Below, one piece after another: positions 1 through 14,341 of a DNA stretch of 64,000 bases (positions within the stretch are counted from its first letter, which is position 1; the number at the start of each line of letters is the position of its first letter). The position numbers were made by a program, and so were the translations under genes. Location of the stretch: the NCBI GenBank assembly GCA_043808325.1, contig JAZDEY010000078.1:15717-79716 (forward strand), read 5' to 3'. The stretch is from JAZDEY01 sp043808325 [NCBI: Candidatus Eiseniibacteriota bacterium] (GTDB lineage: Bacteria; Arandabacterota; Arandabacteria; Arandabacterales). The notes below the pieces were generated by a model. That model was given only the letters and a program-made list of their open reading frames with translations. It did no database searches and had not been told where the DNA came from.

Positions 1-407
1 TTCTCCGCTTCATACGCGGCAAACCTGCCGGGAACCGAGATAAGGACCAGGTTGATATCCGGATATTGCTTGAGCGCGCTCTCGAGTCCACGGGCTACGT
101 AGGTTCCGGACTCGTCACCGCCCTGCGGCTTTGCACTCCCTGCGACCTCACTTCGCACCAGTGAAAGCGCGGCCTCAAGGGCGGCGGCGTCCTGAGCATC
201 TATGGCTATCACGAGATCGTTCGCCGAGGCGGCACCCAGGCCCGCAACATCAAACCCACCCTCTCTGAGCAGCAGCAGATTGGTATCGGTCGCCATGGCC
301 ACCATGGCGGTCTTGACCCGGGGTGCGTCGCATACCTTCTTAGAGAGGCGCATCAGGCTTACCGAATCGAGGTAGACCGATTTCTCAATGGATACGTGCT
401 TCATCAT
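1..407 (-). CDS. fdrA: FdrA family protein, N-terminal part (cut by the window edge)
   Basis: The reading frame enters at two adjacent ATGs (407 and 404) and stays open to base 1, giving at least 134 residues. The beginning (MKHVSIEKSVYLDSVSLMRL) and the acidic 'AMATDTNLLLLREGGF' stretch match the N-terminus of FdrA, a succinyl-CoA-synthetase-like protein. In E. coli FdrA (AllF) acts with AllG and AllH as oxamate carbamoyltransferase in allantoin breakdown. A GAGGAG ribosome site lies 4 bases before the second ATG, so 404 is probably the true start. The start overlaps the end of the DUF2877 gene, so the two are translationally coupled. Seen: sequence and overlap. Known: family role. Inferred: the same reaction here, since the AllG-like partner would lie outside the window. 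Confidence 0.85.
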   Translation of the reverse strand, partial: MMKHVSIEKSVYLDSVSLMRLSKKVCDAPRVKTAMVAMATDTNLLLLREGGFDVAGLGAASANDLVIAIDAQDAAALEAALSLVRSEVAGSAKPQGGDESGTYVARGLESALKQYPDINLVLISVPGRFAAYEAE

Positions 408-1392
408 TCTCCTCAAAAGCAGGACATTCCTCACGCCCGAGTGCAAGCTTAAACCAGAAGAGAACCCCTGCCAGCATATCCCGGCCGGAAGTTGCCCCAA
501 GGTCCGATAGGCGATCGATGCAGAATCGCATCTTCGCTGGATCGCGACTCGCCAGCGAGCCGACAAGCCCCCGGAGCGGTTCGGGATAGAACCCTTCGAG
601 AGCCGCCTTGAGCATGAAATAGGATGGCAGTGTAGTCGACCGGATCAAGGGCCGCATCGCGGCAACAAGATCGTCGATGAGCCCCTCTCCGGGCAACACA
701 TCCGTGCCGGCGAAGCAATGGGCCGCGGCGACGAAGCCCGTGACGAAATCGTCTCCCGAGGGCGTGAGGCCAAATCCCAGGCCTATAGCAGGTCCGAGTG
801 CAGCCGCGAGCCGATCGGCCGACTGCGCTTGCCACGCGGCCACGATATCGTTAAGAATGTCGTCAATCCGGGCGCCGAGCAGTGAACGCAGATCGGTGTC
901 CTGCCCCGGCGCCAGCGCCACCGCTCGAGTCGCAAGCACCCTCGCCAGAAAAAGCGACTGGCCGGGGCATGCTCGAGCGAGCACGCGAAGCTCCCGGAGT
1001 GCGGCCGCCGCCGAGCCCCGGGAGAAGTATCCGGTGCGGCCGAGCGCAGCATCCCAGGTGTCGGCGCCTTCAAGCACGATCGCGACTCCGCGATCTCCGA
1101 TCTCTATCAAAGACCTGCTGATCCGCACGCTCTCCCCGGGCGTCGCACACAGGAACGGCACCGCATCAGCACCGACATCGACAATGATCGAATACGCATG
1201 GAGCGGAACCCCAAGCGGATGCAGACTTACCCAGACGCCTCGCCCACCAATGATATTCACAGTCCGCCTGTAGCAGGAATGCACTCTCCACGATTCAGGC
1301 TCCGCCGGGAGCGTAGCCGCAACGAAACCGCTTACGCTAAGGGCTCGAAGTGTCAGACCTGAAGAGCGCACATGATCGACTATGAGTGTCAT
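385..1392 (-). CDS. DUF2877 (AllH/YlbF-like) protein
   Basis: A protein of 335 residues with the DUF2877 signature GFGLTPSGDDFVTGF near residue 205. In E. coli the homologue YlbF (AllH) is encoded beside FdrA and is a subunit of the oxamate carbamoyltransferase that yields carbamoyl phosphate from oxamate. The gene starts inside the stop of the molybdenum subunit gene (ATGA overlap at 1389-1392) and ends inside the start of fdrA, so it sits in the middle of one cotranscribed operon. No signal peptide or membrane segment is seen, so it is probably cytoplasmic. Family assignment is firm; the substrate in this organism is inferred from neighbours only. Confidence 0.85.
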   Translation of the reverse strand: MTLIVDHVRSSGLTLRALSVSGFVAATLPAEPESWRVHSCYRRTVNIIGGRGVWVSLHPLGVPLHAYSIIVDVGADAVPFLCATPGESVRISRSLIEIGDRGVAIVLEGADTWDAALGRTGYFSRGSAAAALRELRVLARACPGQSLFLARVLATRAVALAPGQDTDLRSLLGARIDDILNDIVAAWQAQSADRLAAALGPAIGLGFGLTPSGDDFVTGFVAAAHCFAGTDVLPGEGLIDDLVAAMRPLIRSTTLPSYFMLKAALEGFYPEPLRGLVGSLASRDPAKMRFCIDRLSDLGATSGRDMLAGVLFWFKLALGREECPAFEENDEARIH

Positions 1393-3767
1393 GAGCCGGT
1401 CTTTGGTTCGGCCCTGAGCGCCAGGAAGACACGCTCGGGACTCAGCGGGAGCTCGTGAATCCGGAGGCCCGTGGCGTCAAACAGGGCGTTGCCGATCACC
1501 GTAGGCACAGAAATCATCGGGTGCTCGGCGACCCCCCGCGCGCCAAAAGGCCCTTTGTCGTGGGGCGTCTCCACGAAGATCTGAATCATCTCGCGCGGGA
1601 TATCCTTGGCCGTAAGGATCTTGTAGTCGGTAAACGAGCTGTTGAGGAGGTGACCCTTATCATCATATCTATACTCCTCGGCGAGAGCTGTCCCGATACC
1701 CTGCACCCCGCCACCAATCACCTGCGCCCGGGCGAGCGCATCGTTGATCACGCGCCCAACATCGAACGCGGATACCAGCTTCATAATCTCGATGTCGCCG
1801 GTCGCGGGATCAATCTCAATCTCCACCGCATGGGCGCCATAGGTCCAGTTGAGCGCCGGAAGTCCTTGGCCGGTTTCAGTATCGAGATTGGTGAGACCCT
1901 CGGCGACGTAGCTTCCGCGGCCCACGACCGGGCCCCCTATCGAATTCCCATTGGGGAACTTGTAGCCAAGAACCAAATCCTCATATCGCAGGGCTCTCGC
2001 AGGCTCACGCGTGACAAAGACCCGTCCGTCATCGACTTCGAGATCGTCCCGCGAAACCCCGAGCGCCTGCGCGGCAACCGCTTTCATCTGACTGAGCGCA
2101 TCCTCAGCGGCCCTCATGATGCACAGGCTACCCATCACGGTCAGGCGGCTCGCAACAGTCTGCCAGTCGTAGGGTCCGTACTCAGTGTCCCTTCCCCAAA
2201 CGAAATGAATCTTCTCAAACGGCAGTCGCAGGGCGTAGGCCGCGACCTGACTTAAGGCAGTCGCCGTGCCCTGGCCATAATCGACTCCGCTCACCATCAC
2301 ATTGGCGGTAGCATCTTCGTTAAACCTGATGATTGCGCTTGAAGCCGTATTGGGCGGCATCGCAGGGGCCTTGTGGAGCACCGCAAGCCCCTTGCCCCGC
2401 AGCTTGCCTCCACTGCCTCCCTTGCCTCCACTGTCGCCGCGCACCCTGTTCCCGCTCCCACCGCCGCGGCCGTCCCAGTCGATGGCCTTCGCGACCTCTT
2501 CCAGACACTTGCGGACATTGCCGGTATGCTCGGTGATCTTCTCACCGGTTATGGTTGTCGAGCCGGGCCGGAGCAGGTTGATCATTCTGAACTCAAGCGG
2601 GTCCATGCCCAGGTCCCGCGCCACCATATCCATCTGGGATTCGATCGCCCAGAACATCTCGACGTGTCCGAAACCCCGGTAGGCGGTGCCGAAAGGCTTG
2701 GTGGTGTAGACCGTCAGCGAGTCGATCTTGACATTATCGATGTCGTAGGGGCCCGCCCCCGAATAGCCCGACGCCCGGCCGATGTTGACGCCGTAATCGG
2801 CATAGGCCCCGGCATCCCAGACGTACTCGATCTCCTCGGCAACGATCCTTCCCTCGCGCGTGACGCCGGTCTTGATCCTGCTGTGAAGACCCTGTCGGCA
2901 GGGCAGTGTTATGAACTCCTCGGTCCGCGTGGCAACCAGTCTGACCGGCCGGAAGCCCGCAAACTTGGAGAGCATGACCACCAGCGGCTCCAGATGAATG
3001 CCCGCTTTTCCTCCAAACGCTCCCCCCACGTTGGGCACCATCACTCTTATCCGCGCCTGGGATATGTCGAGGGCAACGCTCAGGAGATGCCGCACCGCAA
3101 AAGGCGACTGAGCCGAAGTCCAGATCTCGATCGCGCCACTGGGCTTCCAGTGCCCGATGCTTGCGTGGGTCTCAAGCGGCGCGTGCTGTACCTGAGGCGC
3201 GTAGAAGGTATTCTCGATCGCCTTGTGGCTCTTGGCGAAGCCCGCCTCGACATCGCCCTTCCTCAAGCGGAAATGATTCGCAACATTGGTGTGATGGATC
3301 GGGCAGAAGACGCCCTTGACGCAGTCATAGGTGTGGAGGAATTCGTGAACCAGGGGCGCTTCGGGCTTTATGGCCTCCCGGGCATCAAGCACCGGCTCGA
3401 GCACCTCGTACTTGACCTTGATCAGGCTCACGGCCTCCTGCGCTACCTCTTCGCTGGTTGCAGCCACCGCAGCCACGGGCTCGCCGCAGTATCGGACCTT
3501 GCCGTCGGCGAGAATCGGCTTATCCACCATATAGAGCCCGACCCGATAGGGAAGATCCTTGCCGGTGAGCACGGCCTTGACCCCCGGGACACCCTTGGCC
3601 CGCTCGATATCTATGCTTACGATCTTAGCGTGAGCATGAGGACTGAGGAGCATCTTGGCATAGAGCATGCCCGGCAGCTTGATGTCGGCCGTGAAGGTGG
3701 CACTGCCCGTCACCTTCTCGACACCATCAATTCGCGGCACGGACTTGCCTATGAGGTCATCCTTCAT
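1389..3767 (-). CDS. Xanthine dehydrogenase family protein, molybdopterin-binding subunit
   Basis: A protein of 792 residues, the usual length for the large subunit of three-gene molybdenum hydroxylases. It starts with the typical GKSVPRIDGVEKVTGSATFTAD segment split here over residues 7-28, carries the molybdopterin motif GGAFGGKAG, GQGT in the second Mo-binding half, and RGVAEHP near the C-terminus with the conserved catalytic glutamate. The reaction is hydroxylation of a purine or other N-heterocycle or aldehyde using water. It overlaps the 2Fe-2S gene by four bases (ATGA), so the complex is coexpressed. Odd: a Gly/Ser/Lys-rich insert around residues 432-455 is encoded by in-frame short repeats (see separate entry). 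Substrate cannot be told from sequence; linkage to FdrA/DUF2877 favours purine or ureide catabolism. Confidence 0.93.
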   Translation of the reverse strand: MKDDLIGKSVPRIDGVEKVTGSATFTADIKLPGMLYAKMLLSPHAHAKIVSIDIERAKGVPGVKAVLTGKDLPYRVGLYMVDKPILADGKVRYCGEPVAAVAATSEEVAQEAVSLIKVKYEVLEPVLDAREAIKPEAPLVHEFLHTYDCVKGVFCPIHHTNVANHFRLRKGDVEAGFAKSHKAIENTFYAPQVQHAPLETHASIGHWKPSGAIEIWTSAQSPFAVRHLLSVALDISQARIRVMVPNVGGAFGGKAGIHLEPLVVMLSKFAGFRPVRLVATRTEEFITLPCRQGLHSRIKTGVTREGRIVAEEIEYVWDAGAYADYGVNIGRASGYSGAGPYDIDNVKIDSLTVYTTKPFGTAYRGFGHVEMFWAIESQMDMVARDLGMDPLEFRMINLLRPGSTTITGEKITEHTGNVRKCLEEVAKAIDWDGRGGGSGNRVRGDSGGKGGSGGKLRGKGLAVLHKAPAMPPNTASSAIIRFNEDATANVMVSGVDYGQGTATALSQVAAYALRLPFEKIHFVWGRDTEYGPYDWQTVASRLTVMGSLCIMRAAEDALSQMKAVAAQALGVSRDDLEVDDGRVFVTREPARALRYEDLVLGYKFPNGNSIGGPVVGRGSYVAEGLTNLDTETGQGLPALNWTYGAHAVEIEIDPATGDIEIMKLVSAFDVGRVINDALARAQVIGGGVQGIGTALAEEYRYDDKGHLLNSSFTDYKILTAKDIPREMIQIFVETPHDKGPFGARGVAEHPMISVPTVIGNALFDATGLRIHELPLSPERVFLALRAEPKTGS
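2403..2433. repeat. In-frame 13-bp direct repeat inside the Mo-subunit gene
   Basis: The 13-mer CTTGCCTCCACTG occurs at 2403-2415 and again at 2421-2433, an 18-bp period (six codons). It lies in a stretch coding on the minus strand for a Gly/Ser/Lys-rich loop that family members normally lack. This looks like replication slippage that lengthened a surface loop without breaking the frame. Confidence 0.7.
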
Positions 3768-4261
3768 GTCTCGACTCGCCCTTCCCCGGCGCGCCCCCGG
3801 TAAGCCGCATCCAGAATGGCCTCGATGATGGGTTTATAGCCGGTACACCGGCAGAGGTTGCCCGAGATCGCTTCCTTGACATCATCTTCGGTGGGATCGG
3901 AATTTCTCATCAACAGGGCGCGCGCCGACATGATCATGCCGGCCGTACAGAAGCCGCACTGAAACCCTGCGTGATCCACGAAGGCTTGCTGGAGCGGACT
4001 TAAATCCCCTTGCCGCGCTTCGCCCTCGATCGTCAAGACCTCGCAGCCGTCCGCCTCGACAGCGAGCACAAGGCAGGAGTTCACGGGCTTGCCACTTAGG
4101 ATTACGGTACAGGCCCCGCACTCACCCTTGCCGCAACCTTCCTTGGTCCCGAGGAGTGCAAGCTGGTCGCGCAGCAGCCTTAAGAGCGTCCAGTTGTCTT
4201 CCACCTGGACCGAGATCTTCTCGCCATTGACAGTTACGCTTATGAGTTTTGCCGGGCTCAT
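3764..4261 (-). CDS. Xanthine dehydrogenase family protein, 2Fe-2S subunit
   Basis: A protein of 165 residues with the plant-ferredoxin-type cluster CGKGECGACTV plus a further Cys in VNSCLV, followed by the helical domain cluster CGFCTAGM ... LCRCTGY. These eight cysteines bind two [2Fe-2S] clusters that pass electrons from the molybdenum centre to FAD. The length is typical of the small subunit of CO-dehydrogenase-like and xanthine-dehydrogenase-like enzymes. It lies 7 bases after the FAD subunit and overlaps the Mo subunit by 4 bases. Cytoplasmic, no signal peptide. Confidence 0.95.
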   Translation of the reverse strand: MSPAKLISVTVNGEKISVQVEDNWTLLRLLRDQLALLGTKEGCGKGECGACTVILSGKPVNSCLVLAVEADGCEVLTIEGEARQGDLSPLQQAFVDHAGFQCGFCTAGMIMSARALLMRNSDPTEDDVKEAISGNLCRCTGYKPIIEAILDAAYRGRAGEGRVET

Positions 4262-4268
4262 ATCCGAT

Positions 4269-5111
4269 CTACGTACGTCCCTTCTTGCGCATAAGCTTCT
4301 CGAGCAGACTTGCGACCAACATCTCAGTCATGTACTGCCTGTAGCGGCCCGAGCCTCGTACGTCGTCTATAGGTGAAATCGACTCACGGACGATTTTGAG
4401 GATCTCATCTCGCTGCCCAAGCCCAAGACCCTCCAGTCTGTGAACCAAGAGCGGCGTCGGAGCGACCGCGCCGAGCGCGACCTTGACCCCACCGCCCGAG
4501 CTCGCCGCGGCGGCGTTCACCACGGCCAGATCGTGCCCCCTTATCCGCGTCCGCTTGGCAGCACCGGACGCGATTCCGGCAGCCACCGGAACTACGATCT
4601 CGGCTACAAGATCATGCCTCGCGAGGCAGGTCTGTTTGGGGCACGTGAAGAACCCTTTGAGCGGCTCGGCCCGTTCGCCCTGTGGCGAAAGAACCTTGAG
4701 ATGCGCATCAAGCACCAGGAGCGGCGGGCCCAGATCGCAGGCAGGCGAGGCATTGCAGAGATTGCCGCCGACAGTTGCCCGGTTTCTTACCTGGTAGGTG
4801 CCCAGCCACGAGGCAGCTTCGCGGAGAGCATCCATCCCTTCCGGCAGATGCTTGTATTCGTGGAGCTCGTTCACGGTAACGCAGGCCCCGATCCGGAGAC
4901 AACCGTCCCTCGTCTCGATTCTGCGAAGCTCCGGAATCCGTTTGATGTCTATCAGGTACCTGGTGCTCGGGCCCGCGGCTGCGCCTTCCTGCATGCCGAC
5001 CAGGAGGTCGGTCCCACCCGCCAGGATTCGCGCCTCCGGCCCATAATCGGACAGGGCCTTCAGGGCTATCCCTATGGTCGTGGGCCTCAGATAACCGAAT
5101 CTCGGAAGCAC
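4269..5111 (-). CDS. Xanthine dehydrogenase family protein, FAD-binding subunit
   Basis: The protein belongs to the FAD-binding PCMH fold: ARILAGGTDLLVGMQEG binds FAD, and RNRATVGGNLCNASPACD is the conserved 'TxGGNlxnaspasD' motif. It takes electrons from the 2Fe-2S subunit. I chose the GTG at 5111 (about 280 residues) because it follows a GAGGAA sequence and gives the normal family N-terminus (VLPRFGYLRP); the frame is open to an ATG at 5234, but that would abut the divergent gene's start and add 41 residues unlike the family. It is the first gene of the Mo-hydroxylase operon. Promoter and operator for both directions must fit in 5112-5235. Confidence 0.9.
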   Translation of the reverse strand: MLPRFGYLRPTTIGIALKALSDYGPEARILAGGTDLLVGMQEGAAAGPSTRYLIDIKRIPELRRIETRDGCLRIGACVTVNELHEYKHLPEGMDALREAASWLGTYQVRNRATVGGNLCNASPACDLGPPLLVLDAHLKVLSPQGERAEPLKGFFTCPKQTCLARHDLVAEIVVPVAAGIASGAAKRTRIRGHDLAVVNAAAASSGGGVKVALGAVAPTPLLVHRLEGLGLGQRDEILKIVRESISPIDDVRGSGRYRQYMTEMLVASLLEKLMRKKGRT

Positions 5112-5167
5112 AACTTCCTCGTCGAAAACAGGGCTCGAAACTTGAATCACAGCGCGGAGTAATCCGC

Positions 5168-5196
5168 TTGCAAATCCACGCCGAATAGCGTAGATT
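5168..5196 (+). promoter_or_regulatory. Candidate sigma-70 promoter for the GNAT-thiolase-DUF35 operon
   Basis: TTGCAA (5168-5173) and TAGATT (5191-5196) are separated by 17 bases, each matching four of six consensus bases. The first gene starts 40 bases downstream with a GGAGAGG ribosome site. The match is moderate. Confidence 0.4.
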
Positions 5197-5202
5197 GAAA
5201 TT

Positions 5203-5217
5203 CCTTGAGATTCAAGG
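5203..5217. promoter_or_regulatory. Palindrome CCTTGAGATTCAAGG in the divergent intergenic region
   Basis: A perfect 6-bp inverted repeat (CCTTGA/TCAAGG) with a 3-base centre, just downstream of the candidate plus-strand -10 box and upstream of the Mo-hydroxylase operon. Position between two divergent operons is what an operator would have. A short T run follows, so a small hairpin in the leader is the alternative. Confidence 0.4.
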
Positions 5218-5235
5218 TTTTTCGGAGAGGCCAAT

Positions 5236-5922
5236 ATGAAACAACTCGAAGAAGTCCTGAGACCGCCCGAGAGGAACCTTCCCCCTTATCCTCCCAAGTC
5301 CATCCTGCTCGCCAGTGGTGAGCGAATGGTGGTGAGACAGGCCGCACGGGAAGAAGTTCCGACTCTGCTCAAGGCCGTCCAGCCCCTGGTCGGCGTTGCC
5401 CGCGACTTTTATGACATCGTGGCTGGCCGAACTTATGCTGAGCTCTTAGGATGGATGCGCTACCGCGTGCGCGACGAGTATTGCCTGGTCGGCTTGATCG
5501 ACGGCACGCTCGTGGGTCTGGTGAACGGCCGCTCGCTCAGTAAGAAGATCGGCGTGAGCTACCACACGATCGCCATGAGACGCGGCCTGCGCGTCGGGGC
5601 ACATCTCTTCGCGGCCAAGATGGAATACCACATCGAGTATCTTGGCCAGGAAGAGGTCTACATAGTTGCCGAGAGCCCCATAGGCTTCAGGCGCTGGATG
5701 ATCGAATATCCGCTTGTGGAGCGGCCCCAGGTCCACCACGAACTCGGCGGTGTGATGTCGTGGGCCCTGACGCGAGATATCTACCTCGCGGCCAAGCCCA
5801 GGCTGGTGGTGGGTGAGCGCCCGGTCTCAAAGGAGTTGCTCGAGACCGCCGCCGAAATCCGCCTGGTCGGGGAAGAGACCCTTATTCAGCAGGTCGCCGG
5901 AAAAGCGGAGCAGAAGAAGTAA
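5236..5922 (+). CDS. GNAT-fold-like protein, first gene of the thiolase operon
   Basis: A protein of 228 residues. After a 30-residue lead it has the layout of an N-acetyltransferase: VVRQAAREEVPTLL, a beta-strand pair around YCLVGLIDGTLVGLVNGR, a glycine-containing turn (RRGLRVGAHLFAAKMEY) where acetyl-CoA would bind, then EVYIVAES and a C-terminal RRWMIEYPLVERP. The resemblance is by pattern and the canonical Q/RxxGxG/A loop is weak, so enzyme activity is uncertain. It begins after a clear GGAGAGG site and lies 23 bases before the thiolase gene, which suggests a role with that enzyme. I do not recognise a characterised homologue. Confidence 0.7.
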   Translation: MKQLEEVLRPPERNLPPYPPKSILLASGERMVVRQAAREEVPTLLKAVQPLVGVARDFYDIVAGRTYAELLGWMRYRVRDEYCLVGLIDGTLVGLVNGRSLSKKIGVSYHTIAMRRGLRVGAHLFAAKMEYHIEYLGQEEVYIVAESPIGFRRWMIEYPLVERPQVHHELGGVMSWALTRDIYLAAKPRLVVGERPVSKELLETAAEIRLVGEETLIQQVAGKAEQKK

Positions 5923-5945
5923 GAGAAGCAGAAAGGTATCACAAG

Positions 5946-7133
5946 ATGCCGTTCGCGCGAAACGTCTATGTAGTCGGCTGTGCCATGACCCGCTTCGGCC
6001 GGAGCGAAGGCAGCCTTTTGGACATCATCGAGGAGGCATCGCTTGGAGCGATCGCAGACTCGGGACTGGACGCCACGGCGATCCGCAGCGTGATCGTTGC
6101 CAACATGGGAGCCGGCATTCTGAATCATATGACCGGACTCGGCTCGGCCACCGTGGACCGGCTGAGCCTTTACCCTGCGGCCGCGGAAGTGGTTGAAAAT
6201 GGCCCAGCCTCGGGCGGTTCGGCCGCGAAGGTTGGGGCCTGCGCAGTTGCATCCGGCTTGGTGGATGTGGCCCTGGTCGTGGGCGCCGAGAAGATGCGGG
6301 ACGTCACCGGCTGGGAATCCACCGATTTCGTGGCAACGCTTTCCCAACCCCAGGTCGAGTATATCTACGGGGTCACGCTGCCATCGCTTGCCGGCATGTT
6401 CGCGCGGCTCTACATGGAGAAGTACGGCATCGAGCCCAGGCATCTCGCAATGGTTGCCATCAAGAATCACGCCAATGCGCTCAAGAATCCTTACGCCCAC
6501 ATTCAGCAGGCCATAACCATGGAAGGCATTCTCACGAGGCCCGAGGCCGTAGTGAATAACCCTCCGGTTGCCGAGCCCTTGCGGATGTTCGATTGCTGCC
6601 CGGTGAGCGACGGCGCAGCTGCCCTCGTTCTCGCGTCGGAAGAGGTTGCAAGGAGATTGCCCCATCGGGTCAGGATTGCCGGAATCGGCCAGGCAACCGA
6701 CACCCACGCGGTTCATGAACGCAAGGACCCAACGGAGCTCACCGCGGTTCGCCTGGCAGCCAAGCAGGCTTTTGACATGGCCGGCGTTAAGCCCGCCGAC
6801 GTCGATGTCGCGGAATTGCACGATGCTTTCACCATTCTCGAGATCGCGGAGAGCGAAGAAGTCGGCTTCTTCAAGAAGGGTACCGGACACGTCGCGCTCG
6901 AAAAGGGCGAGACATCCCTCACGGGTAAGCTTCCCATAAATCCATCGGGCGGCCTCAAGGCCAAGGGCCATCCGGTCGGCGCCACCGGTGTCGCCCAGCT
7001 CGCCGAATTGACGTGGCAACTGCGAGGTGAGGCCGGCGAACGTCAGGTCAAGGGCGCCAAGACCGGGTTCTCCTGTAACTTCGGGGGATTCGGCAATAAC
7101 GTTGTGGCTTTTGTGCTCTCCGGGGAAAAGTAG
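5946..7133 (+). CDS. Thiolase-superfamily protein (SCP-x/lipid-transfer type) lacking the nucleophilic Cys
   Basis: A protein of 395 residues, normal for the SCP2-thiolase group. It keeps HDAF at 292-295, INPSGGLKAKGHPVGATG around 331-348 and the C-terminal SCNFGGFGNN. Where active thiolases have the nucleophile in 'ENACASGG', this protein reads ENGPASGG (84-91), with Pro87 at the cysteine position; I checked the codons (ggc cca gcc). Without that cysteine it should not do ordinary thiolysis. The steroid side-chain enzyme Ltp2, which pairs with a DUF35 protein, is a precedent for cysteine-less thiolase-fold retro-aldolases. The DUF35 gene follows by 5 bases. Inferred: an acyl-CoA aldolase or a non-catalytic acyl-CoA binder. 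Confidence 0.88.
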   Translation: MPFARNVYVVGCAMTRFGRSEGSLLDIIEEASLGAIADSGLDATAIRSVIVANMGAGILNHMTGLGSATVDRLSLYPAAAEVVENGPASGGSAAKVGACAVASGLVDVALVVGAEKMRDVTGWESTDFVATLSQPQVEYIYGVTLPSLAGMFARLYMEKYGIEPRHLAMVAIKNHANALKNPYAHIQQAITMEGILTRPEAVVNNPPVAEPLRMFDCCPVSDGAAALVLASEEVARRLPHRVRIAGIGQATDTHAVHERKDPTELTAVRLAAKQAFDMAGVKPADVDVAELHDAFTILEIAESEEVGFFKKGTGHVALEKGETSLTGKLPINPSGGLKAKGHPVGATGVAQLAELTWQLRGEAGERQVKGAKTGFSCNFGGFGNNVVAFVLSGEK

Positions 7134-7138
7134 AAGCG

Positions 7139-7471
7139 ATGAACGATATCAACGGATTCGTGTGCAAAGCCTGCAGCCACAAGACCTATCCTCGCCACGC
7201 CCGCTGTCCGTCCTGCGGCAAGCGCGAGTTCGACCTGGTTCCACTTGGGCAGAGCGCGACCCTGCTCACTTTCACCCGCGTCCACATGCTCTCCCTCGCC
7301 TTCACCGAGCGGTTCATTACACTGGGGATAGTCCAGTTTGACAGCGGCTTCCGTGCGCTCGGCAGGCTCCTCGTGAGCGAGCCCAGGGTGGGCATGAAAC
7401 TCAAGGCCGAGATCGGGACCGTAAGAGACGACGATGGCGAGAAGGTCGCCGGCCTGTGCTTCACCGCGTGA
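7139..7471 (+). CDS. DUF35 OB-fold Zn-ribbon protein, partner of the thiolase homologue
   Basis: A protein of 110 residues. Four cysteines, C9-x2-C12 and C23-x2-C26, form the rubredoxin-like zinc ribbon, followed by an OB fold (LVPLGQSATLLTFTRVH ... ITLGIVQFDSGFRALGRLL). DUF35 proteins bind thiolase-fold enzymes and channel acyl-CoA, as in the archaeal thiolase/HMG-CoA synthase complex, benzoylsuccinyl-CoA thiolase (BbsAB) and ChsH2-Ltp2. It lies 5 bases after the thiolase gene, so a stable complex is expected. It ends the operon; a strong hairpin follows at 7550. Confidence 0.88.
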   Translation: MNDINGFVCKACSHKTYPRHARCPSCGKREFDLVPLGQSATLLTFTRVHMLSLAFTERFITLGIVQFDSGFRALGRLLVSEPRVGMKLKAEIGTVRDDDGEKVAGLCFTA

Positions 7472-7611: not shown

Positions 7612-10600
7612 CTATCTCACAACCAGCATTTTCTTGGTGGCCCTGAAGCCTCCGCCGTCCATGGTATAGAAATACACCCCGCTCGAGACGCGCTCGCCTG
7701 CGGCATTTGTCCCGTCCCAGGAGGCGCTGTACCGGCCCGGATCTTTCGATTGCTTGACCAGCGTTCGCACCAACTGCCCCGCGGTATTGAATACACGGAT
7801 CTTTACGTCACATCGGCTCGCTATCTCGTACCTGATCTCCGTGGCAGCCGCCACAGGATTCGGCGCATTCTGAGAGAGCGCCCAGGCGAAAACTGCACGA
7901 CCCGGCGGTGCCACTCCGGCGGTGCCGCCACCGGACGGCTCTAGGCCAAAGAGGTCATGAAGGATGACGTGCATGAGATCCGCTCGCCCATAGTAGTCGC
8001 CCGCATTGAAATCCGGAGCGGGCGATTGCGCACTGCCATCGCAGTAACCGCGGGAGTGGTTCACTGTAGAGCACAGATCGAAATTGAGCGAGACACACTG
8101 CCCCAGGCCCTGGTACTCCACGTAGGTGGCCCCATCTGCGTGAGGATAGGTGCCACTCACATTGAGCACATCAAGCAACTGCTGAGCCGTGTAGCCCGCC
8201 GGTGGAGATAGGTTCGTGAGGATGTAGCTCATATCCTTAAGATATGGGCACCCTCGGTAGACCAGGACCGAGTCCAATTGAATCGAGACCGGGGAGCCGA
8301 ACACATTGACTGTGGGAGCAGCCTTCATGTAAGCATAGGGGGTAGTGAAGCCGGACTCCATCTCTTCCTCATAGGTGCTACCCATGATACCGCTTAGAAA
8401 CTCACCGCCGAGTGAGTCCTCACCAACCACCACCATGTTGTAAGCGATCCGGTCGCCGCACAACACCACCTTGCCTCCGGCGCCGAGATAGGCCTTGATG
8501 ACTCGCTGGGCTTCGGTATCAAACAGGTAATTCGAGAAGTAGGGCCCCGTGAACCACACCACGGCGTCATAGTCATCATACCAAATCGGATGGATGTGCT
8601 GATTGCTACCCGCGCCGCTGATGTCGTACTTGTCGTAGCAGTAGCCGGCATCCGTCAGGGTCTGCTCGTATATAGCTTCGAGCGGGACGGTGCGGTCGGT
8701 CACACTCAGACACGGTGACCAGTCATACAGCCTCCGGTTGTGTCCGTCCACGAGAAGCACCTTGGTACCCGTATAGGTCTCCGGGAAAGTGGGAAGGATC
8801 GAAAACTCGAAGTAGTCGTCGCGCGTTCCCGTGTGTCCCGTGTGTCCGGGATTTGCTCTACCTGGGAAATACCCGAAGTTGCCGAGGGCATCGGTCGCCT
8901 TGACGTAGTACCAGACCTCGGTGCCCGTGGCCCACTCGGTAAGACCGAAGTCGGAAGGGCACAGGGTCCCATAGTACTCGCCGCCCAGGGTTGGATCCGA
9001 GGGCTCCCGAGGCATGGCGAGGTGCATCACCCTATTGACCCAAGTTGCACCGCCGTCGATGCTCCCCCAGACCTCCACTGCCGTAAGATGATCGTCATCG
9101 GCGACGTTGAGATACAGCTGATCCCCCTTCGGAAGCGGGGGCGCCCCCGGGCCTGAGTAGCGCGCCACCGAGTCGGCGTCGTAAGCATCGAAGAAGGAGT
9201 TGTAGCCGCAGATGCCTGTAAAGAAGGTGTCGTGGAGGAGATCTATGCCGCGCGCTGAAAAGACGGTGGCACTTCCGTCAAAGAAACCGATCGAGACATT
9301 GTCCACCTGAAAATCGGTGCCCGTGTGCTTGCCCCGGCATATATCCCCTGGCACAGAGCTATCTATAATATCCCAAGCATATTGCATGGAGTCGGCCGTC
9401 GAGGTCATATAGCGTGAGACGTCTTCCGACCGGTCGAAATTCCAGAAGAAGCACCCGCTACCGCAGATCGAGTAGTCTCTATCTTCCACCCAGGGGCACC
9501 ATCTCTGGGTAGCTGAGTCATAGAACCTTACCCTGGTGGCCGTGTAATCACAGGTGTTGTCCCAGGCACACCTGAACTCGTCCCACTGAACCGCGCACCC
9601 GCTGCTAGGCACGGGCACCTTGGGTGTCATCAGCCGATAGTACCAACCGTTCCTCCAGGCGACTCCACTAGGGTAGCCCTTTTCAGGTCGTGCACGGTAA
9701 ACGAAGGAAGAATCGAGATGGCAGGTAGCTCGCGGGCCTCCGTCACCGCCCTCATACGGTGGGTCGGGATCGTGCGTTATGTGCCACGCGTCGAGCACGC
9801 CGGGGGGATTCTCGAGCGTCCAGTACTCGGGCAGCGGGCCGAAGGCGGCACAGGTCTCAAAGTCCTGAGCGTAGAAGCTCCCGGCATCGCCATAGATCAT
9901 TACGTTGTCAACGAAGGCTGCACCATCGGTGTTGCCCCGGCCATCGCCATCACTCCAGGCGCCGTCAGAAACGAATCTCCATCTCAACTTGGGAGCGTTG
10001 ACCGTCGTGCCCAGCATCGTCTTGGTGATGATCCCCTTGAATGCGGGGACACCCGTGATAGTTCTGGGTTGCCAGTCGCACCGGGTGAGCCTCGAAACAT
10101 CGGTATTCCCGAAGTAATCGGGATTAGGATTGGAGGTCCCACCACAAGCGCTACCCGGGTCATTGCTGGTGGCGTTGAACACGGCGAGGGTCTTCCAGGT
10201 AGTTCCGGCCAAGTAGTCGACGTAGAAATAGTCGTACTTGCACTCGGTGTCATACCGGGGATCGAGGTAAAGTGTACAGCCATTGGCCACACTGAAGGAC
10301 GAAGGCAGCGTGAGCTGCGCTACGCAGTTCCACTGGTCGCCGTAACCCGGGGGATTGATCCAGGTCCCACATTCGACCGGCTGGCCCTGCCACAGCGCCC
10401 CCGATCCACACCACAGAGCGTAGTTGCCGCAATAGGCCCTTTGGTCGGTGCGGTAGGTATCCACGTGCCAGTAGTTGATTCCCATCGGGGACGGCAGGCT
10501 TCTCACATCGACGTGGGTGAAGCACCTGGTATCCCACGGTGGATTGGTGCCGCACGAGTCACCTGGGCCACCCTCAAAACACCAGGTCTCAAGCGGCCCC

Positions 10601-10863
10601 GGGCCACCACTTGTCTCGCCGCCATGCCCCAGGGCGGGGTCCCCCGGGCAGTATGACGCGTTATCATGGGCTTGAAGCCAGGTCGTGTCGCCGGCGGAAG
10701 TCATGACAAAAGGCCCGGAAGCTGAGCCGAGCCCTCCGCCGGGCATTCCCGCAGGATTAAACGGCGGCTGAAGGTCACGCTGGCATTCCGTCATTGGGAA
10801 ACCATCCGAGGAGAGCAACATGAGCGATACAAACAAAAGCCCGACTACGGTCGCTGCTTTCAT
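7612..10863 (-). CDS. Large secreted Cys-rich protein with FlgD-like C-terminal domain, copy 2
   Basis: About 1,083 residues from the ATG at 10863, which opens a clear signal peptide (MKAATVVGLLFVSLMLLSS) and has GAGG six bases upstream; an in-frame ATG at 10875 overlaps the previous gene's stop. The first part is rich in Cys, Gly and aromatic residues, with beta-rich stretches like MAM/immune-inhibitor-A jelly rolls. A central region (LLVDGHNRRLYDW ... GAGGKVVLCGDRIAY) looks like a GATase1/ThuA-type flavodoxin-like fold. The last 80 residues (VKIRVFNTAGQLVRTL ... WDGTNAAGERVSSGVYFY) form the FlgD-like Ig domain used for surface sorting or anchoring in FCB bacteria. It is a close paralogue of the upstream gene. 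Function unknown; probably extracellular. Confidence 0.88.
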   Translation of the reverse strand: MKAATVVGLLFVSLMLLSSDGFPMTECQRDLQPPFNPAGMPGGGLGSASGPFVMTSAGDTTWLQAHDNASYCPGDPALGHGGETSGGPGPLETWCFEGGPGDSCGTNPPWDTRCFTHVDVRSLPSPMGINYWHVDTYRTDQRAYCGNYALWCGSGALWQGQPVECGTWINPPGYGDQWNCVAQLTLPSSFSVANGCTLYLDPRYDTECKYDYFYVDYLAGTTWKTLAVFNATSNDPGSACGGTSNPNPDYFGNTDVSRLTRCDWQPRTITGVPAFKGIITKTMLGTTVNAPKLRWRFVSDGAWSDGDGRGNTDGAAFVDNVMIYGDAGSFYAQDFETCAAFGPLPEYWTLENPPGVLDAWHITHDPDPPYEGGDGGPRATCHLDSSFVYRARPEKGYPSGVAWRNGWYYRLMTPKVPVPSSGCAVQWDEFRCAWDNTCDYTATRVRFYDSATQRWCPWVEDRDYSICGSGCFFWNFDRSEDVSRYMTSTADSMQYAWDIIDSSVPGDICRGKHTGTDFQVDNVSIGFFDGSATVFSARGIDLLHDTFFTGICGYNSFFDAYDADSVARYSGPGAPPLPKGDQLYLNVADDDHLTAVEVWGSIDGGATWVNRVMHLAMPREPSDPTLGGEYYGTLCPSDFGLTEWATGTEVWYYVKATDALGNFGYFPGRANPGHTGHTGTRDDYFEFSILPTFPETYTGTKVLLVDGHNRRLYDWSPCLSVTDRTVPLEAIYEQTLTDAGYCYDKYDISGAGSNQHIHPIWYDDYDAVVWFTGPYFSNYLFDTEAQRVIKAYLGAGGKVVLCGDRIAYNMVVVGEDSLGGEFLSGIMGSTYEEEMESGFTTPYAYMKAAPTVNVFGSPVSIQLDSVLVYRGCPYLKDMSYILTNLSPPAGYTAQQLLDVLNVSGTYPHADGATYVEYQGLGQCVSLNFDLCSTVNHSRGYCDGSAQSPAPDFNAGDYYGRADLMHVILHDLFGLEPSGGGTAGVAPPGRAVFAWALSQNAPNPVAAATEIRYEIASRCDVKIRVFNTAGQLVRTLVKQSKDPGRYSASWDGTNAAGERVSSGVYFYTMDGGGFRATKKMLVVR

Positions 10864-10871
10864 CCCACACC

Positions 10872-13800
10872 TCATCTCAATACCAACATCTTCTTGATCG
10901 ACTTATACCCGGATGCTTCCATCTTGTAGAAATAGACACCGCTCGACACTCGCTGGCCTTGAGCGTTCGTGCCGTCCCAGGCCACATTGTACTCGCCGGG
11001 CCCCTTGCGCTCGGCTACCAGGGTACGCACCATCTGACCGGTCGCGCTATAAAGCGTGATCTTGACTTCCCCGGCACGAGCGACTGCGTACCTGATGTCT
11101 GCGGATGCCCTTACAGGATTGGGTGTATTCTGGAAGAGGTCCCACTGGTGCACCGGGGACTTGGGCTCGGGCGCTCCTGCCTGGCCACCGCTTGAGGATG
11201 GCAGTCCAAAGAGGTCTTCAAGAATCACCCGCACAAGTTCCACGCGGCCATCATAAGTCCCCGCAGCAAAATCCGGGGCCGGGCCGGCGGCATTGCCGTC
11301 GCAGTAGCCGCGCTCATGACTGACCGAGGCCGACAGATCGAAATTGACATAGACGCACTGGCCCAGGCCACTGGCCTCGGTGTAGATCACTTCATCGGCC
11401 TGCGCGATTGTGGGATTCGCAAGGTACATAAGTTGCTGAGCCGTATAGCCCGGAGGCGGAGTGGCGTTGGTGAGCACATACGACATATCCTTCAGGTCCG
11501 GGCAGCTCCGATAGACCAGCAGCGTGTCGAGGTCGACGGCCACGGGAGTCCCGAACACGGCGATCGAATCCACGGCCACGGAATAGGCAAACGGGTAGGT
11601 GAAGCCATCCGGCATCCAGCTCTGGTAGACGCATCCCAGGATCCCACTCAGGAACTCGCCACCGAGCGAGTCCTCGCCGACCTCCGCCATACAGTAGGCT
11701 ATCCGGTCACCACACAGCACCACCTTGCCGCCACCATCGAGGTAGTCTCTCAGGGCCCGCTGGGCCTCGGCGTCAAACAGATAGTTGGCGAAATAGGGCC
11801 CCGTGAACCACACTACCGCATCATAGTCTGAAAACGTGGTCGGATGGATGTGCTGATTGCTCCCGGCTCCGCCGATGTCAAACTTATCGTAGCAGTAGCC
11901 GGCATCCGCCAGGGTCTGGCCGTAGATTTTCTCAAGCATGAACTGCTGGTCTGTCTGGCTGAGGCAGGGCGCCCAATCGTTCACCCGTCGGCTGTGCCCA
12001 TCGACAAGTAGAATTCTCGGACCCTCGTAACTCTCCGGAAACATCGGCAGGATCGAGAACTCCAGATAGTCCTCGCGCGTGCCAGTGCGGCCGGGATGGC
12101 TGGGATCGGCCTTGTCCGGGAAATACCCGAAATTGCCGAGGACGTCGGTGGCCTTGACGTAGTACCAGACCTCAGTGCCTCTCGCCCACTGACCGAGGCC
12201 GAAATCGGCCGGGCAGAGTGTACCATAGTACTCTCCGCCAAGAGCCGGGTCGAACGGATCCGCGGCCTCCGCAAAAGTCATAGGGTTGGAGTGCCAGTTC
12301 GCACCCCCGTCAATGCTTCCCCAGACTGCAACGGCGCCAAGATGGTCAGGGTCGATCACGCGGAGATAGAGCTGGTCTTCCTTGGGAAGCGGCGGCGCTC
12401 CCGGACCTGAGTACTTGGCCACGGTATCCGGGCTATAGACATCGAAGAAGGAGTTGTAGCCGCAGATATCGGTGAGGAAGGTGTCGTGGAGCAGATCTAT
12501 CCCTCTCCCCCCGAAATCCGTGGCCGCGGCATCGTAGAAACCGATTGAGACGTTGTCGACCTGGTAGTCGGTGGAGGTATGCTTGCCCCGACACGGGTCC
12601 CCAGGCACTGATACATCGAGGACCTCCCACGCGAATTGCATCGAGTCGGCGGTCGAGGTCATATAGTCTGAAACGTCTTTCGACCGGTCGAAATTCCAGA
12701 AGAAGCAACCCTCAAGATGGATCGGAGTGGGGTCAAGCCACGGGCACCACTTGCCATACTGGCTATCATAGAACCTCACCCACTCACTCCCATAGTCACA
12801 GGTGACGTCGGAACTGCACCAATAGGAGTCGTACTGGATTAGTGCCCCGCTATTCACCATGGGAACGCGCGGAGTCATCAGCCGGTAGTACCAGCCGTTC
12901 CGCCAGGCAGCCCCCGATGGATACCCCTTCTCGGGCCGGGCGCGCCACATCATCGAGGAGTCCACGACGCAGGTGACGCGGGTTCCGCCATCCCCACCGC
13001 CCTCATACGGCGGGTCGGGATCGTGCGTTATGTGCCATTGGTCGATCACGCCGGCCGGATTCTCGAGCGTCCAGTACTCGGGCAGCTGCCCGAAGGCGGC
13101 ACAGGTCTCGAAGTCCTGAGCATAGAAACTCCCGGCAGCGCCGTAGACCATCACGTTGTCAACGAAGGCTGCGCCATCCGTGTTCCCCCTCCCGTCGCTA
13201 TCACTCCAGCCGCCGTCAGAAACGAATCTCCATCTCAACTTGGGCGCGTTGACCGTCGTGCCCAGCATCGCCTTTGTGATAATGCCCTTGTATGCGGGCT
13301 GTCCGGGCACGGCCCTCTCCTGCCAATTACACTGGGTGAGCCTGTTGAGGTCCGTGTTCCCAAAGTAGTCTGGGTTAGGCGCTGCACTCCCGCCGCAGGG
13401 CCCGCCGGGGTCATTGCTGGTGGCGTTGAACATCGCAAGCGTCTTCCAGGTGGTGCCGCTTAAGTAGTCGACATAGAAATAGTCGTACTTGCACTCGGTG
13501 TCATACCGGGGGTCGAAGTAGACCGTGCAGCCATTGGCCACGCTGAAGGAGGAAGGCAGCGCGAGCTGGGCTATGCAGTTCCACTGGTCGCCGTAGCCCG
13601 GTGGATCGATCCAGGTCCCGCATTCGACCGGCTGACCCTGCCACAGCGCAGCCGAGCCGCACCACAACGCGCGACTGCCGCAGTAGGCTCGCTGGGTGGT
13701 CTTGTAACTATCGATGTGCCAGTAGTTGATGTTCATCTGCGAGGGTAGAGCTCGTACATCCACGTGCTTAAAACAGTCGGTGGTCCAGGGCGGATTGGTG

Positions 13801-14114
13801 CCGCACGAGTCGCCTGGGCCACCCTCAAAACACCAGGTCTCGAGCGGCCCGGGACCGCCGGTCGCCTCGCCGCCGTGACCCAAGGTAGGATCGCCAGGGC
13901 AAGCGGCCGACGTGTTGTGAACCTGGACCCAGGTGGTGTCTCCCCCTGACGAGAGAACGTAGGGTTCATTGACCGACAGGTAGTTGGTCGCTGCGAGCGG
14001 CGGTGGCGCGATTTGGCCGCGTTCGACCATCGCAAAGCCCGAAGCAGCGAGTACTAACAAGATGACTGCAATAGTCAGCAAACCTAAGAGCAGATCTGTC
14101 TTCCTTGCGTCCAT
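10872..14114 (-). CDS. Large secreted Cys-rich protein with FlgD-like C-terminal domain, copy 1
   Basis: 1,080 residues from the ATG at 14114, preceded by AGGAGA at a 7-base spacing; the frame extends upstream but the extra nine residues lack a ribosome site. The N-terminus (MDARKTDLLLGLLTIAVILL) is a signal peptide or anchor. Domain order is the same as in copy 2: Cys-rich beta region, GATase1-like region (ILLVDGHSRRVNDW ... DGGGKVVLCGDRIAY), and the C-terminal FlgD-like domain (VKITLYSATGQMVRTL ... NAQGQRVSSGVYFY). Long stretches are identical to copy 2, so this is a tandem duplication, and the two genes are adjacent and cotranscribed. Many paired cysteines suggest disulfides outside the cytoplasm. 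No enzymatic motif is recognised. Confidence 0.88.
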   Translation of the reverse strand: MDARKTDLLLGLLTIAVILLVLAASGFAMVERGQIAPPPLAATNYLSVNEPYVLSSGGDTTWVQVHNTSAACPGDPTLGHGGEATGGPGPLETWCFEGGPGDSCGTNPPWTTDCFKHVDVRALPSQMNINYWHIDSYKTTQRAYCGSRALWCGSAALWQGQPVECGTWIDPPGYGDQWNCIAQLALPSSFSVANGCTVYFDPRYDTECKYDYFYVDYLSGTTWKTLAMFNATSNDPGGPCGGSAAPNPDYFGNTDLNRLTQCNWQERAVPGQPAYKGIITKAMLGTTVNAPKLRWRFVSDGGWSDSDGRGNTDGAAFVDNVMVYGAAGSFYAQDFETCAAFGQLPEYWTLENPAGVIDQWHITHDPDPPYEGGGDGGTRVTCVVDSSMMWRARPEKGYPSGAAWRNGWYYRLMTPRVPMVNSGALIQYDSYWCSSDVTCDYGSEWVRFYDSQYGKWCPWLDPTPIHLEGCFFWNFDRSKDVSDYMTSTADSMQFAWEVLDVSVPGDPCRGKHTSTDYQVDNVSIGFYDAAATDFGGRGIDLLHDTFLTDICGYNSFFDVYSPDTVAKYSGPGAPPLPKEDQLYLRVIDPDHLGAVAVWGSIDGGANWHSNPMTFAEAADPFDPALGGEYYGTLCPADFGLGQWARGTEVWYYVKATDVLGNFGYFPDKADPSHPGRTGTREDYLEFSILPMFPESYEGPRILLVDGHSRRVNDWAPCLSQTDQQFMLEKIYGQTLADAGYCYDKFDIGGAGSNQHIHPTTFSDYDAVVWFTGPYFANYLFDAEAQRALRDYLDGGGKVVLCGDRIAYCMAEVGEDSLGGEFLSGILGCVYQSWMPDGFTYPFAYSVAVDSIAVFGTPVAVDLDTLLVYRSCPDLKDMSYVLTNATPPPGYTAQQLMYLANPTIAQADEVIYTEASGLGQCVYVNFDLSASVSHERGYCDGNAAGPAPDFAAGTYDGRVELVRVILEDLFGLPSSSGGQAGAPEPKSPVHQWDLFQNTPNPVRASADIRYAVARAGEVKITLYSATGQMVRTLVAERKGPGEYNVAWDGTNAQGQRVSSGVYFYKMEASGYKSIKKMLVLR

Positions 14115-14341
14115 GACGTGTCTCCTGATTTCATGGTACACGGTTCTGGGGCGCAGGTCGTGGCATCACTGGAAACCGCTCGGGAAGCACAGGTGCTGAT
14201 GAGTACATAGAGCTTGATGAAGAGATGAAGCAGGGCAGAACAGCCGACAGACAGATCGGCCCCTCGCTTCTCACGGCGTCCCTCCGGGCAATCTAAAGCG
14301 GGAACCCTATGCCCACTTGCAAAACCACCCCAACCGCCAAT

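What the first reader, a model, noticed from the sequence alone, without database searches (positions are those of the whole stretch)
5236..7471. Thiolase-DUF35 pair in which the thiolase has Pro in place of the catalytic Cys, with a GNAT-like gene
The motif ENGPASGG replaces ENACASGG while the GHPVG and HDAF blocks and the DUF35 partner are intact. DUF35-linked thiolase-fold enzymes include the cysteine-less retro-aldolase Ltp2. The set could be a new acyl-CoA aldolase (carbon-carbon cleaving or forming) operon, with an unusual GNAT-like third gene, divergent from a molybdenum hydroxylase operon.
Basis: partly seen in the sequence, partly recalled or inferred. Interest (0 to 1): 0.65.

Follow-up and report, generated by a model that had tools for sequence, protein, structure and literature searches.

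The report
Cysteine-less thiolase cassette in pyrimidine cluster
A thiolase-like enzyme that has lost its catalytic cysteine travels, in many bacterial phyla, with a small zinc protein and an unclassified GNAT-fold protein, often beside genes that look like a pathway for breaking down uracil-type bases; it is probably a new enzyme complex for the malonate-like fragment of that pathway.

Summary
The thiolase (5946-7133) has Pro87 where the catalytic Cys should be. All 80 homologues kept by the search (61-80% identity) have ENGPASG, and all 80 have HDAF instead of HDCF. The GNAT-like gene is found in 78 of 80 loci and DUF35 in 79 of 80; the exceptions lie at contig ends. The genes mostly overlap or nearly touch.

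The context points to nucleobase breakdown. Many cassettes sit with an AllFGH-type transcarbamylase, a PF04199 cyclase and a Mo hydroxylase; in actinobacterial genomes a barbiturase stands instead of the cyclase. I read this as oxidative pyrimidine catabolism, with the cassette acting on the resulting malonyl unit.

The GNAT protein has a GNAT fold (Z 13.3) and an SPIGF..W motif and His reminiscent of malonyl-CoA decarboxylase, but that link is not statistically significant. Ltp2-type aldolase chemistry is unlikely: the catalytic Tyr is absent. Best reading: a malonyl-unit decarboxylating complex (0.35). Substrate, complex and activity are inferred. The literature searches run found no paper on the cluster.

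The parts
5236..5922 (+). GNAT-fold protein, 228 aa, unnamed family; invariant H110, R116, G117, R119, G121, H123, H132, E146-S147, G150, F151, W154, H168-E169
5946..7133 (+). Cys-less thiolase-fold protein, 395 aa; P87 at the nucleophile site, A294 in HDAF; H292, H342, N378 kept; C218 invariant
6195..6218 (+). ENGPASGG codons (residues 84-91), Pro in place of the catalytic Cys
7139..7471 (+). DUF35 (zinc ribbon plus OB) protein, 110 aa, with invariant C9, C12, C23, C26
4269..5234 (-). FAD subunit of a xanthine-dehydrogenase-type Mo hydroxylase (true start probably inside this ORF)
3764..4261 (-). 2Fe-2S subunit of the Mo hydroxylase
1389..3767 (-). molybdopterin subunit of the Mo hydroxylase
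385..1392 (-). AllH-family (PF11392) transcarbamylase subunit
   Evidence: E 1.9e-19
1..407 (-). N-terminal part of an AllF/FdrA-like protein, cut by the window edge
   Evidence: by BLAST clustering with AllF homologues; coordinates

Best explanation
The three genes encode one complex: a thiolase-fold dimer without the catalytic cysteines, its DUF35 zinc/OB scaffold, and a GNAT-fold subunit. It works in an oxidative pyrimidine (barbiturate) catabolic pathway. Proposed route: a base such as uracil is hydroxylated by the Mo hydroxylase to barbiturate; a PF04199 cyclase, or a barbiturase in some lineages, opens the ring to ureidomalonate; an AllFGH-type transcarbamylase releases the carbamoyl group as carbamoyl phosphate for carbamate kinase, leaving malonamate. 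The cassette then acts on this malonyl unit, most likely as a decarboxylating enzyme giving an acetyl-level product and CO2. Without Cys87 it cannot form the usual acyl-enzyme, but the His pair (H292, H342) can stabilise an enolate; the GNAT subunit, with a Ser and a His placed like the catalytic pair of malonyl-CoA decarboxylase (S147, H168), is the likelier decarboxylation site. Shown: gene content, conservation, the missing cysteines, the predicted folds, co-occurrence. Inferred: every substrate and reaction, complex formation, the decarboxylation step, and whether CoA is the carrier.
For: ENGPASG, HDAF, H342, N378 and C218 in 80 of 80 loci. Tight packing: median gaps -4 and +2 nt. AllH, AllF, AllG, cyclase and Mo hydroxylase next to the cassette (counts). 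AllG in 16 of 20 cassette genomes. Cyclase in 13 of 20 at E<=1e-30 and barbiturase in 5 of 20, never both. One barbiturase scored 528 bits to solved barbiturase 5hwe and 331 to the best cyanuric acid hydrolase, and it and six others share 5hwe's SNG where the two hydrolases shown have SRG. In 198 genomes of one class all 6 with barbiturase are among the 7 with the cassette. Carbamate kinase over cut-off in 17 of 20 genomes against 2 of 14 controls. AllFGH forms carbamoyl phosphate in E. coli (PMC11326118, abstract). GNAT-fold decarboxylases exist: MCD and CurA (PMC3701320, passages). TbSLP, thiolase-like without the nucleophilic Cys, decarboxylates malonyl-CoA slowly (as reported in PMC12329534, passages).
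Against: The GNAT family has no Pfam MCD hit. The profile comparison with MCD is not significant: score 27.3, P 0.0086, 15 columns, against a best null of 24.9 in 114; seven of eight single MCD sequences scored below that null, and the eighth (25.3) aligned elsewhere. Two published cases count against the analogy: CtSal, also without the Cys, does not decarboxylate malonyl-CoA, and in the malonyl-ACP decarboxylase MadA the GNAT domain is not the decarboxylase (PMC8666670, passages). The five barbiturase-containing genomes are actinobacterial, so the complementary pattern may be one event. 26 of 80 loci show no pathway gene in the flank held. G014 has no match for AllG, cyclase or barbiturase. 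Carbamate kinase is also present in the four genomes without AllG. A 25-kb Embleya region around a barbiturase lacks the cassette, so barbiturate breakdown need not involve it. Nothing shows where a CoA thioester of malonate would come from. C218 could be a relocated thiol.
Confidence: 0.35

Rival explanations
1. Amide-to-thioester exchange: the GNAT subunit runs in reverse, moving the malonyl group of malonamate (or ureidomalonate) onto CoA, and the Cys-less thiolase-fold subunit decarboxylates malonyl-CoA, so that amide energy is kept as acetyl-CoA.
For: GNAT fold, and GNATs join acyl-CoA and amines (established knowledge); the pathway appears to save energy as carbamoyl phosphate; TbSLP precedent.
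Against: GNAT motif A has Arg119 in place of the usual Gly in 77 of 77 sequences covering it, so ordinary CoA binding is doubtful; CtSal shows no malonyl-CoA decarboxylation; I know of no precedent for such an exchange.
Confidence: 0.15
2. Catalytically silent thiolase: the Pro protein is a structural partner and the GNAT protein does the chemistry.
For: The nucleophilic Cys is absent in 80 of 80 and the HDCF Cys too.
Against: Residues around the site (E84-G90, H292-F295, H342, N378, F382) are invariant in 80 of 80, more than a scaffold role predicts.
Confidence: 0.15
3. A cysteine-less aldolase of the Ltp2/Sal kind acting on a beta-hydroxyacyl thioester.
For: No nucleophilic Cys; DUF35 partner; the model aligns with Ltp2 (Z 49.2) and Sal (Z 49.3).
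Against: Catalytic Tyr of YDHF/YDCY is His here in 80 of 80; thiolases align better, e.g. 6esq Z 60.6; stand-alone DUF35; ureide-type context.
Confidence: 0.08
4. Still an acyltransferase, with the nucleophile moved to C218 (or C377).
For: C218 in 80 of 80 and C377 in 78 of 80; 8 of 10 other thiolases read have Ser at 218.
Against: 2 of the 10 other thiolases have Cys at 218 as well as the normal nucleophile, so the residue is not special to the cassette; C377 is missing in 2 of 80; I know of no nucleophile at either place.
Confidence: 0.1

Closest known systems
Archaeal acetoacetyl-CoA thiolase/DUF35/HMG-CoA synthase complex (6esq, Methanothermococcus)
   Same: Thiolase fold (Z 60.6, 39% identity); DUF35 partner; a third enzyme in the set
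   Different: 6esq keeps the ACASG cysteine; here it is Pro, the third gene is GNAT-fold, and the gene context is ureide-type catabolism
Ltp2-ChsH2 and Sal-Shy steroid aldolases
   Same: Thiolase fold without the nucleophilic Cys, bound to a DUF35 domain
   Different: Their catalytic Tyr (YDHF, YDCY) is His here; their DUF35 is part of a hydratase; steroid pathway
TbSLP (SCP2-thiolase-like protein of Trypanosoma brucei)
   Same: Thiolase fold without the nucleophilic Cys; reported slow malonyl-CoA decarboxylation
   Different: YDCF motif, no DUF35 partner, 22-23% identity
ST0096 of Sulfolobus tokodaii (4yzo)
   Same: Second-best PDB match by profile; also Cys-less at the site (DNTSGSGG); G-(F/Y)-G-N C-terminal loop
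   Different: Different residues at the site; its gene context was not examined
Malonyl-CoA decarboxylase and the CurA GNAT domain
   Same: GNAT fold; an S-P-x-G-F..W motif and a His near beta6 at similar places; imperfect motif A
   Different: No significant sequence match; far shorter, without MCD's helical domain and beta5-beta6 insert
E. coli AllFGH oxamic transcarbamylase
   Same: The AllF, AllG and AllH families occur together beside the cassette
   Different: Predicted substrate ureidomalonate rather than oxalurate (inference); allantoin genes were not searched for

Membership tests
Catalytic thiolase (SCP2/archaeal type) | Nucleophilic Cys in the ACASG-type motif | tested here: not met
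   Pro in 80 of 80 loci; 9 of 10 other thiolases read in cassette genomes have Cys
Catalytic thiolase (SCP2/archaeal type) | Thiolase fold and GHP histidine | tested here: met
   Z 60.6 to 6esq; H342 in 80 of 80
Catalytic thiolase (SCP2 type) | Second catalytic Cys (HDCF) | tested here: not met
   HDAF in 80 of 80; 7 of 10 other thiolases read have HDCF. Not diagnostic alone: Cys-bearing thiolase 7yvy also has HDAF
Ltp2/Sal aldolase | Catalytic Tyr in YDHF or YDCY | tested here: not met
   His292 in 80 of 80; motif from PMC12329534 passages
Ltp2/Sal aldolase | DUF35 carried by the hydratase subunit | tested here: not met
   DUF35 ORFs in 79 loci are 110-135 aa, stand-alone
Benzoylsuccinyl-CoA thiolase BbsAB | NCBIfam equivalog cut-offs | tested here: not met
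   BbsB 178.7 against 750 bits; BbsA 35.3 against 250
DUF35 (ChsH2-like) partner | Cys4 zinc ribbon C-x2-C-x10-C-x2-C | tested here: met
   C9, C12, C23, C26 in 79 of 79
GNAT superfamily | GNAT fold | tested here: met
   Predicted model pLDDT 90.3; Z 13.3 to 8gxj
GNAT superfamily, acetyltransferase type | Motif A (Q/R)xxGx(G/A) | tested here: not met
   Central Gly is Arg119 in 77 of 77 sequences covering it
Malonyl-CoA decarboxylase | Recognisable sequence family (PF05292) | tested here: not met
   No PF05292 hit among 52 members scanned; profile comparison not significant
Malonyl-CoA decarboxylase | Ser-His catalytic dyad after beta5 and at beta6 | tested here: inconclusive
   S147 and H168 in 78 of 78 at fitting places in the model; no superposition made
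Oxidative pyrimidine pathway | Barbiturase | tested here: met
   In 5 of 20 cassette genomes, closest to 5hwe barbiturase where tested. No match in the other 15; 13 of these have the cyclase
Oxidative pyrimidine pathway | Mo hydroxylase acting on uracil or thymine | not testable with these tools
   Subunits present; specificity unknown
AllFGH transcarbamylase | AllF, AllG and AllH families together | tested here: met
   Family hits in L042; AllG in 16 of 20 genomes. In the window only AllH and part of AllF are inside the window

The most novel reading that the evidence does not exclude
A widespread, undescribed, energy-saving pathway for pyrimidine bases in uncultured bacteria: barbiturate is opened by a new cyclase-type hydrolase, the carbamoyl group is saved as carbamoyl phosphate by an AllFGH-type transcarbamylase, and the remaining malonamate is turned into an acetyl product by a three-part complex of a cysteine-free thiolase, DUF35 and a GNAT-fold decarboxylase, a new combination of folds and a new use of the thiolase active site.
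Probability: 0.25. Interest if true: 0.8.

Novelty: new variant of a known kind. Interest (0 to 1): 0.6.

Why it matters
If true, it adds a third kind of partner to thiolase/DUF35 complexes, a thiolase active site that works without either catalytic cysteine, and a candidate gene set for oxidative pyrimidine breakdown, a pathway described since the 1950s and held to be rare (PMC3758960, passages). It also gives testable functions to several families now annotated only generically (FdrA, DUF1116, DUF2877, PF04199 cyclase and an unnamed GNAT family) in uncultured phyla.

Tried and rejected
Local mutation or sequencing error at residue 87: rejected. Ltp2-type aldolase: not favoured. BbsAB membership: rejected. 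Purine or allantoin pathway: considered because AllFGH acts on oxalurate in E. coli; the barbiturase genes favour pyrimidines, but purines are not excluded for genomes that have only the cyclase, and allantoin genes were not searched for.

The MCD link by sequence: Pfam, PDB profile searches and hhalign gave nothing significant. In one search three E. coli GNATs (RimI 12.4, RimJ 10.9, SpeG 14.9) scored below every MCD sequence (16.5-25.3), but shuffled MCDs reached 24.9 and the GNATs are shorter, so this says little. MCD was not among the 50 rows shown by either fold search, which does not exclude it. PF05292 was not found in 58 genomes or 3 records (L115 was not searched, being too large); a set of 6 records gave one, which served as query for more.

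The cassette's GNAT gene had no match in the plasmid collection at E 1e-10, and in one phylum sample only the centre genome had it (1 of 296). Published description: searches listed no paper on this cluster; the library is open-access PMC only. One search (Cys-less ketosynthases) was read only as a listing; the KSQ and chain-length-factor comparisons are recalled, not tested. The Ser247 pantetheine position of bacterial thiolase, which made C218 look interesting, is recalled.

Corrected on re-checking: C218 is not specific to the cassette (2 of 10 other thiolases have it); the identity range is 61-80%; site counts were redone on all 80 loci in place of the 53-row alignment.
Full report
OBSERVATION. 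The middle protein is a thiolase by Pfam (Thiolase_C_1 9.9e-47, Thiolase_N 1.5e-26) and carries Pro87 in ENGPASGG. Its best NCBIfam model is the thiolase subfamily NF004720, at 410.6 bits just under the 420 cut-off. The third protein is a DUF35 protein, weak by Pfam (OB_ChsH2_C 2.1e-5, below cut-off) but with the four zinc-ligand Cys in 79 of 79 homologues. The first protein has no significant family hit.

NOT A LOCAL MUTATION. A scan of genome contigs gave 169 relatives, of which the tool kept the best 80. All 80 have ENGPASG; 78 have the GNAT-like gene upstream (one of these, L045, only in part) and 79 the DUF35 gene downstream. The two without the GNAT gene (L025, L041) begin within about 120 bases of the thiolase, and the one without DUF35 (L064) ends 24 bases after it. 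Identity is 61-80%. Record titles carry about twenty phylum- or class-level names (Eisenbacteria, Bipolaricaulota, Zixibacteria, Verrucomicrobia, Ignavibacteria, Elusimicrobia, Acidimicrobiia, Riflebacteria, Planctomycetota and others), and all 80 are labelled MAG or uncultured. The median gap is -4 nt between GNAT and thiolase (77 of 78 within 200 nt) and 2 nt between thiolase and DUF35 (79 of 79).

THE THIOLASE SITE. In all 80 loci residues E84-N-G-P-A-S-G90, H292-D-A-F295, H342, N378 and F382 are unchanged. I searched 20 whole genomes with the profile of 53 sequences (window plus 52 of the 80 loci). Each has one cassette copy at 665-774 bits, and the next best thiolase has 408 bits. Ten of the 21 lower matches were given loci and read: 9 of 10 have Cys at the site (the tenth, L161, has Ser) and 7 of 10 have HDCF. 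So relative to most of these the cassette protein lacks both catalytic cysteines; HDAF alone is not unusual, since Cys-bearing 7yvy has it too. The cassette rows form one side of a 100/99-supported branch (18 cassette rows, 10 others). C218 is present in 80 of 80 and C377 in 78 of 80; at position 218 the ten other thiolases have Ser in 8 and Cys in 2. A relocated thiol cannot be excluded. The model (pLDDT 89.0, residues 120-142 mostly low) aligns best with archaeal thiolase 6esq (Z 60.6, 1.5 A over 383), and less closely with TbSLP (Z 49.9), Sal (Z 49.3) and Ltp2 (Z 49.2).

THE GNAT-LIKE PROTEIN. The model has pLDDT 90.3 and is a GNAT fold: 8gxj, Z 13.3, 3.0 A over 162 residues (Foldseek). One copy was found in each of 20 cassette genomes and no second member at E 1e-3. 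The usual motif A Gly is Arg119 in 77 of 77 sequences covering it; S147, G150, F151, W154 and H168 are invariant in 78 of 78, P148 in 75 and I149 in 76. In malonyl-CoA decarboxylase, a GNAT-fold enzyme, motif A is also imperfect and the catalytic pair is a Ser and a His (PMC3701320, passages). The printed sequences place these, by my own count of residue numbers, in LSPxPGF and FHLGNGA. The best profile match between the two families is VAESPI-GFRRWM on VTLSPVPGFARWL, but it is weak (P 0.0086, 15 columns). In a null of 114 proteins (66 unrelated, 48 shuffled or reversed MCD) the best score was 24.9, against 27.3 for the MCD profile; single MCD sequences scored 16.5-25.3. I treat this as a lead only. 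The pattern SP[IVLMA]P?GF..[WY] occurred in 65 of 1938 ORFs scanned (sets overlapping in part), all of them in this GNAT family.

GENOMIC CONTEXT. Clustering of ORFs around the 80 loci and Pfam/NCBIfam scans of representatives show recurring neighbours: AllH (DUF2877), AllF/FdrA, AllG (DUF1116), a PF04199 cyclase, the subunits of a xanthine-dehydrogenase-type Mo hydroxylase, and at times an NCS2 permease or a carbon-nitrogen hydrolase. By tblastn in the flanks held, AllG is in 34 of 80, Mo subunits in 33, AllH in 29, AllF in 29, cyclase in 20, NCS2 in 7, CN-hydrolase in 3 and barbiturase in 1; 53 of 80 have a Mo, All, cyclase or barbiturase gene, and 26 of 80 have none of the genes looked for. 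Many contigs are short. Four of these 26 were checked genome-wide: L015, L024 and L079 (G004, G005, G020) have AllG and the cyclase elsewhere in the genome, L057 (G014) has neither. In the window itself the Mo hydroxylase, AllH and the start of an AllF-like ORF lie divergently at 1-5234.

PATHWAY. In E. [quoted passage not shown] In the actinobacterial regions L087 and L088 a ring-opening amidohydrolase lies beside a gene that I take, by eye, for AllH. The L088 protein scores 528 bits against solved barbiturase 5hwe and 331 against the best cyanuric acid hydrolase. It has SMDISNG and 5hwe SMDLSNG, where the two cyanuric acid hydrolases shown have SMAYSRG; the six homologues found in one class also have SNG. 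The literature notes that the Arg at this place is replaced in barbiturases, naming Gln (PMC4051656, passages); the printed 5hwe row shows Asn. PF09663 is present in 5 of 20 cassette genomes and the cyclase (E<=1e-30) in 13 of 20; none has both and two (G003, G014) have neither. G015's cyclase lies about 95 kb from its cassette and is 51% identical to the query, so its role there is unsure. In 198 genomes of one class the cassette is in 7 and the barbiturase in 6, all six among the seven; that class was chosen because its centre has both, and relatedness inflates the figure. Carbamate kinase reaches its cut-off in 17 of 20 genomes (19 of 20 at E 1e-30) against 2 of 14 controls, but also in the four genomes without AllG. 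An Embleya region with a 70%-identical barbiturase has a carbamate-kinase-like gene directly beside it (by eye). Some 6-12 kb away are Mo hydroxylase subunits (molybdopterin subunit 28% identical to the window's), a partial NCS2 match and a CN-hydrolase 39.5% identical to that of L035. In the 25 kb examined it has no cassette, AllF, AllG or AllH.

READING. Together these suggest oxidative pyrimidine catabolism: base, barbiturate, ureidomalonate, then malonamate plus carbamoyl phosphate. The classical pathway ends in malonate and urea (PMC3758960, passages). The unassigned cassette would act on the malonyl unit. Two hints agree: the MCD-like motif of the GNAT protein, and the reported malonyl-CoA decarboxylation by TbSLP (kcat 0.005 per s; PMC12329534, passages). 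Two results disagree: CtSal does not decarboxylate malonyl-CoA (same paper), and in MadA the GNAT domain is not the decarboxylase (PMC8666670, passages). I commit to a malonyl-unit decarboxylating complex at 0.35. An amide-to-thioester exchange is at 0.15, a silent thiolase at 0.15, a relocated Cys at 0.10 and an Ltp2-type aldolase at 0.08. The remainder is for reactions I have not thought of.

LIMITS. No activity, complex or substrate was shown. No whole genome is held for the window. The genomes are MAGs of unknown completeness. The barbiturase pattern is confined to actinobacterial genomes among the 20. G008 and G015 lack AllG but have a CN-hydrolase near the cassette, which may replace the transcarbamylase; a CN-hydrolase was seen in 3 of 80 loci only. 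The cassette is rare in some groups (only the centre genome of 296). No published description was found, which cover open-access PMC only.

Noticed in passing
window 7612-10875 and 10872-14141, minus strand: Two tandem, similar, probably secreted proteins of about 1088 aa with a C-terminal tail (SSGVYFY...KKML) that looks like a sorting or anchoring domain.
   Followed up: no
L161 (G008): A second thiolase without Cys at the site (ESASSTGA, HDAF) outside the cassette.
   Followed up: partly
L042 11308-12126 and homologues: The PF04199 cyclase may be a barbiturate ring-opening enzyme: present in 13 of 20 cassette genomes and never together with barbiturase.
   Followed up: partly
L116 10956-11912: Carbamate-kinase-like gene directly beside the Embleya barbiturase (by eye), suggesting carbamoyl phosphate there too although AllF, AllG and AllH were not found in the 25 kb examined.
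   Followed up: partly
L084 3446-4843: Dihydropyrimidinase-like gene (by eye) upstream of AllH in the G005 cluster.
   Followed up: no
PDB 4yzo (ST0096, Sulfolobus tokodaii): Archaeal thiolase-like protein without the Cys (DNTSGSGG), second-best PDB profile match; its gene context might show a related system.
   Followed up: no
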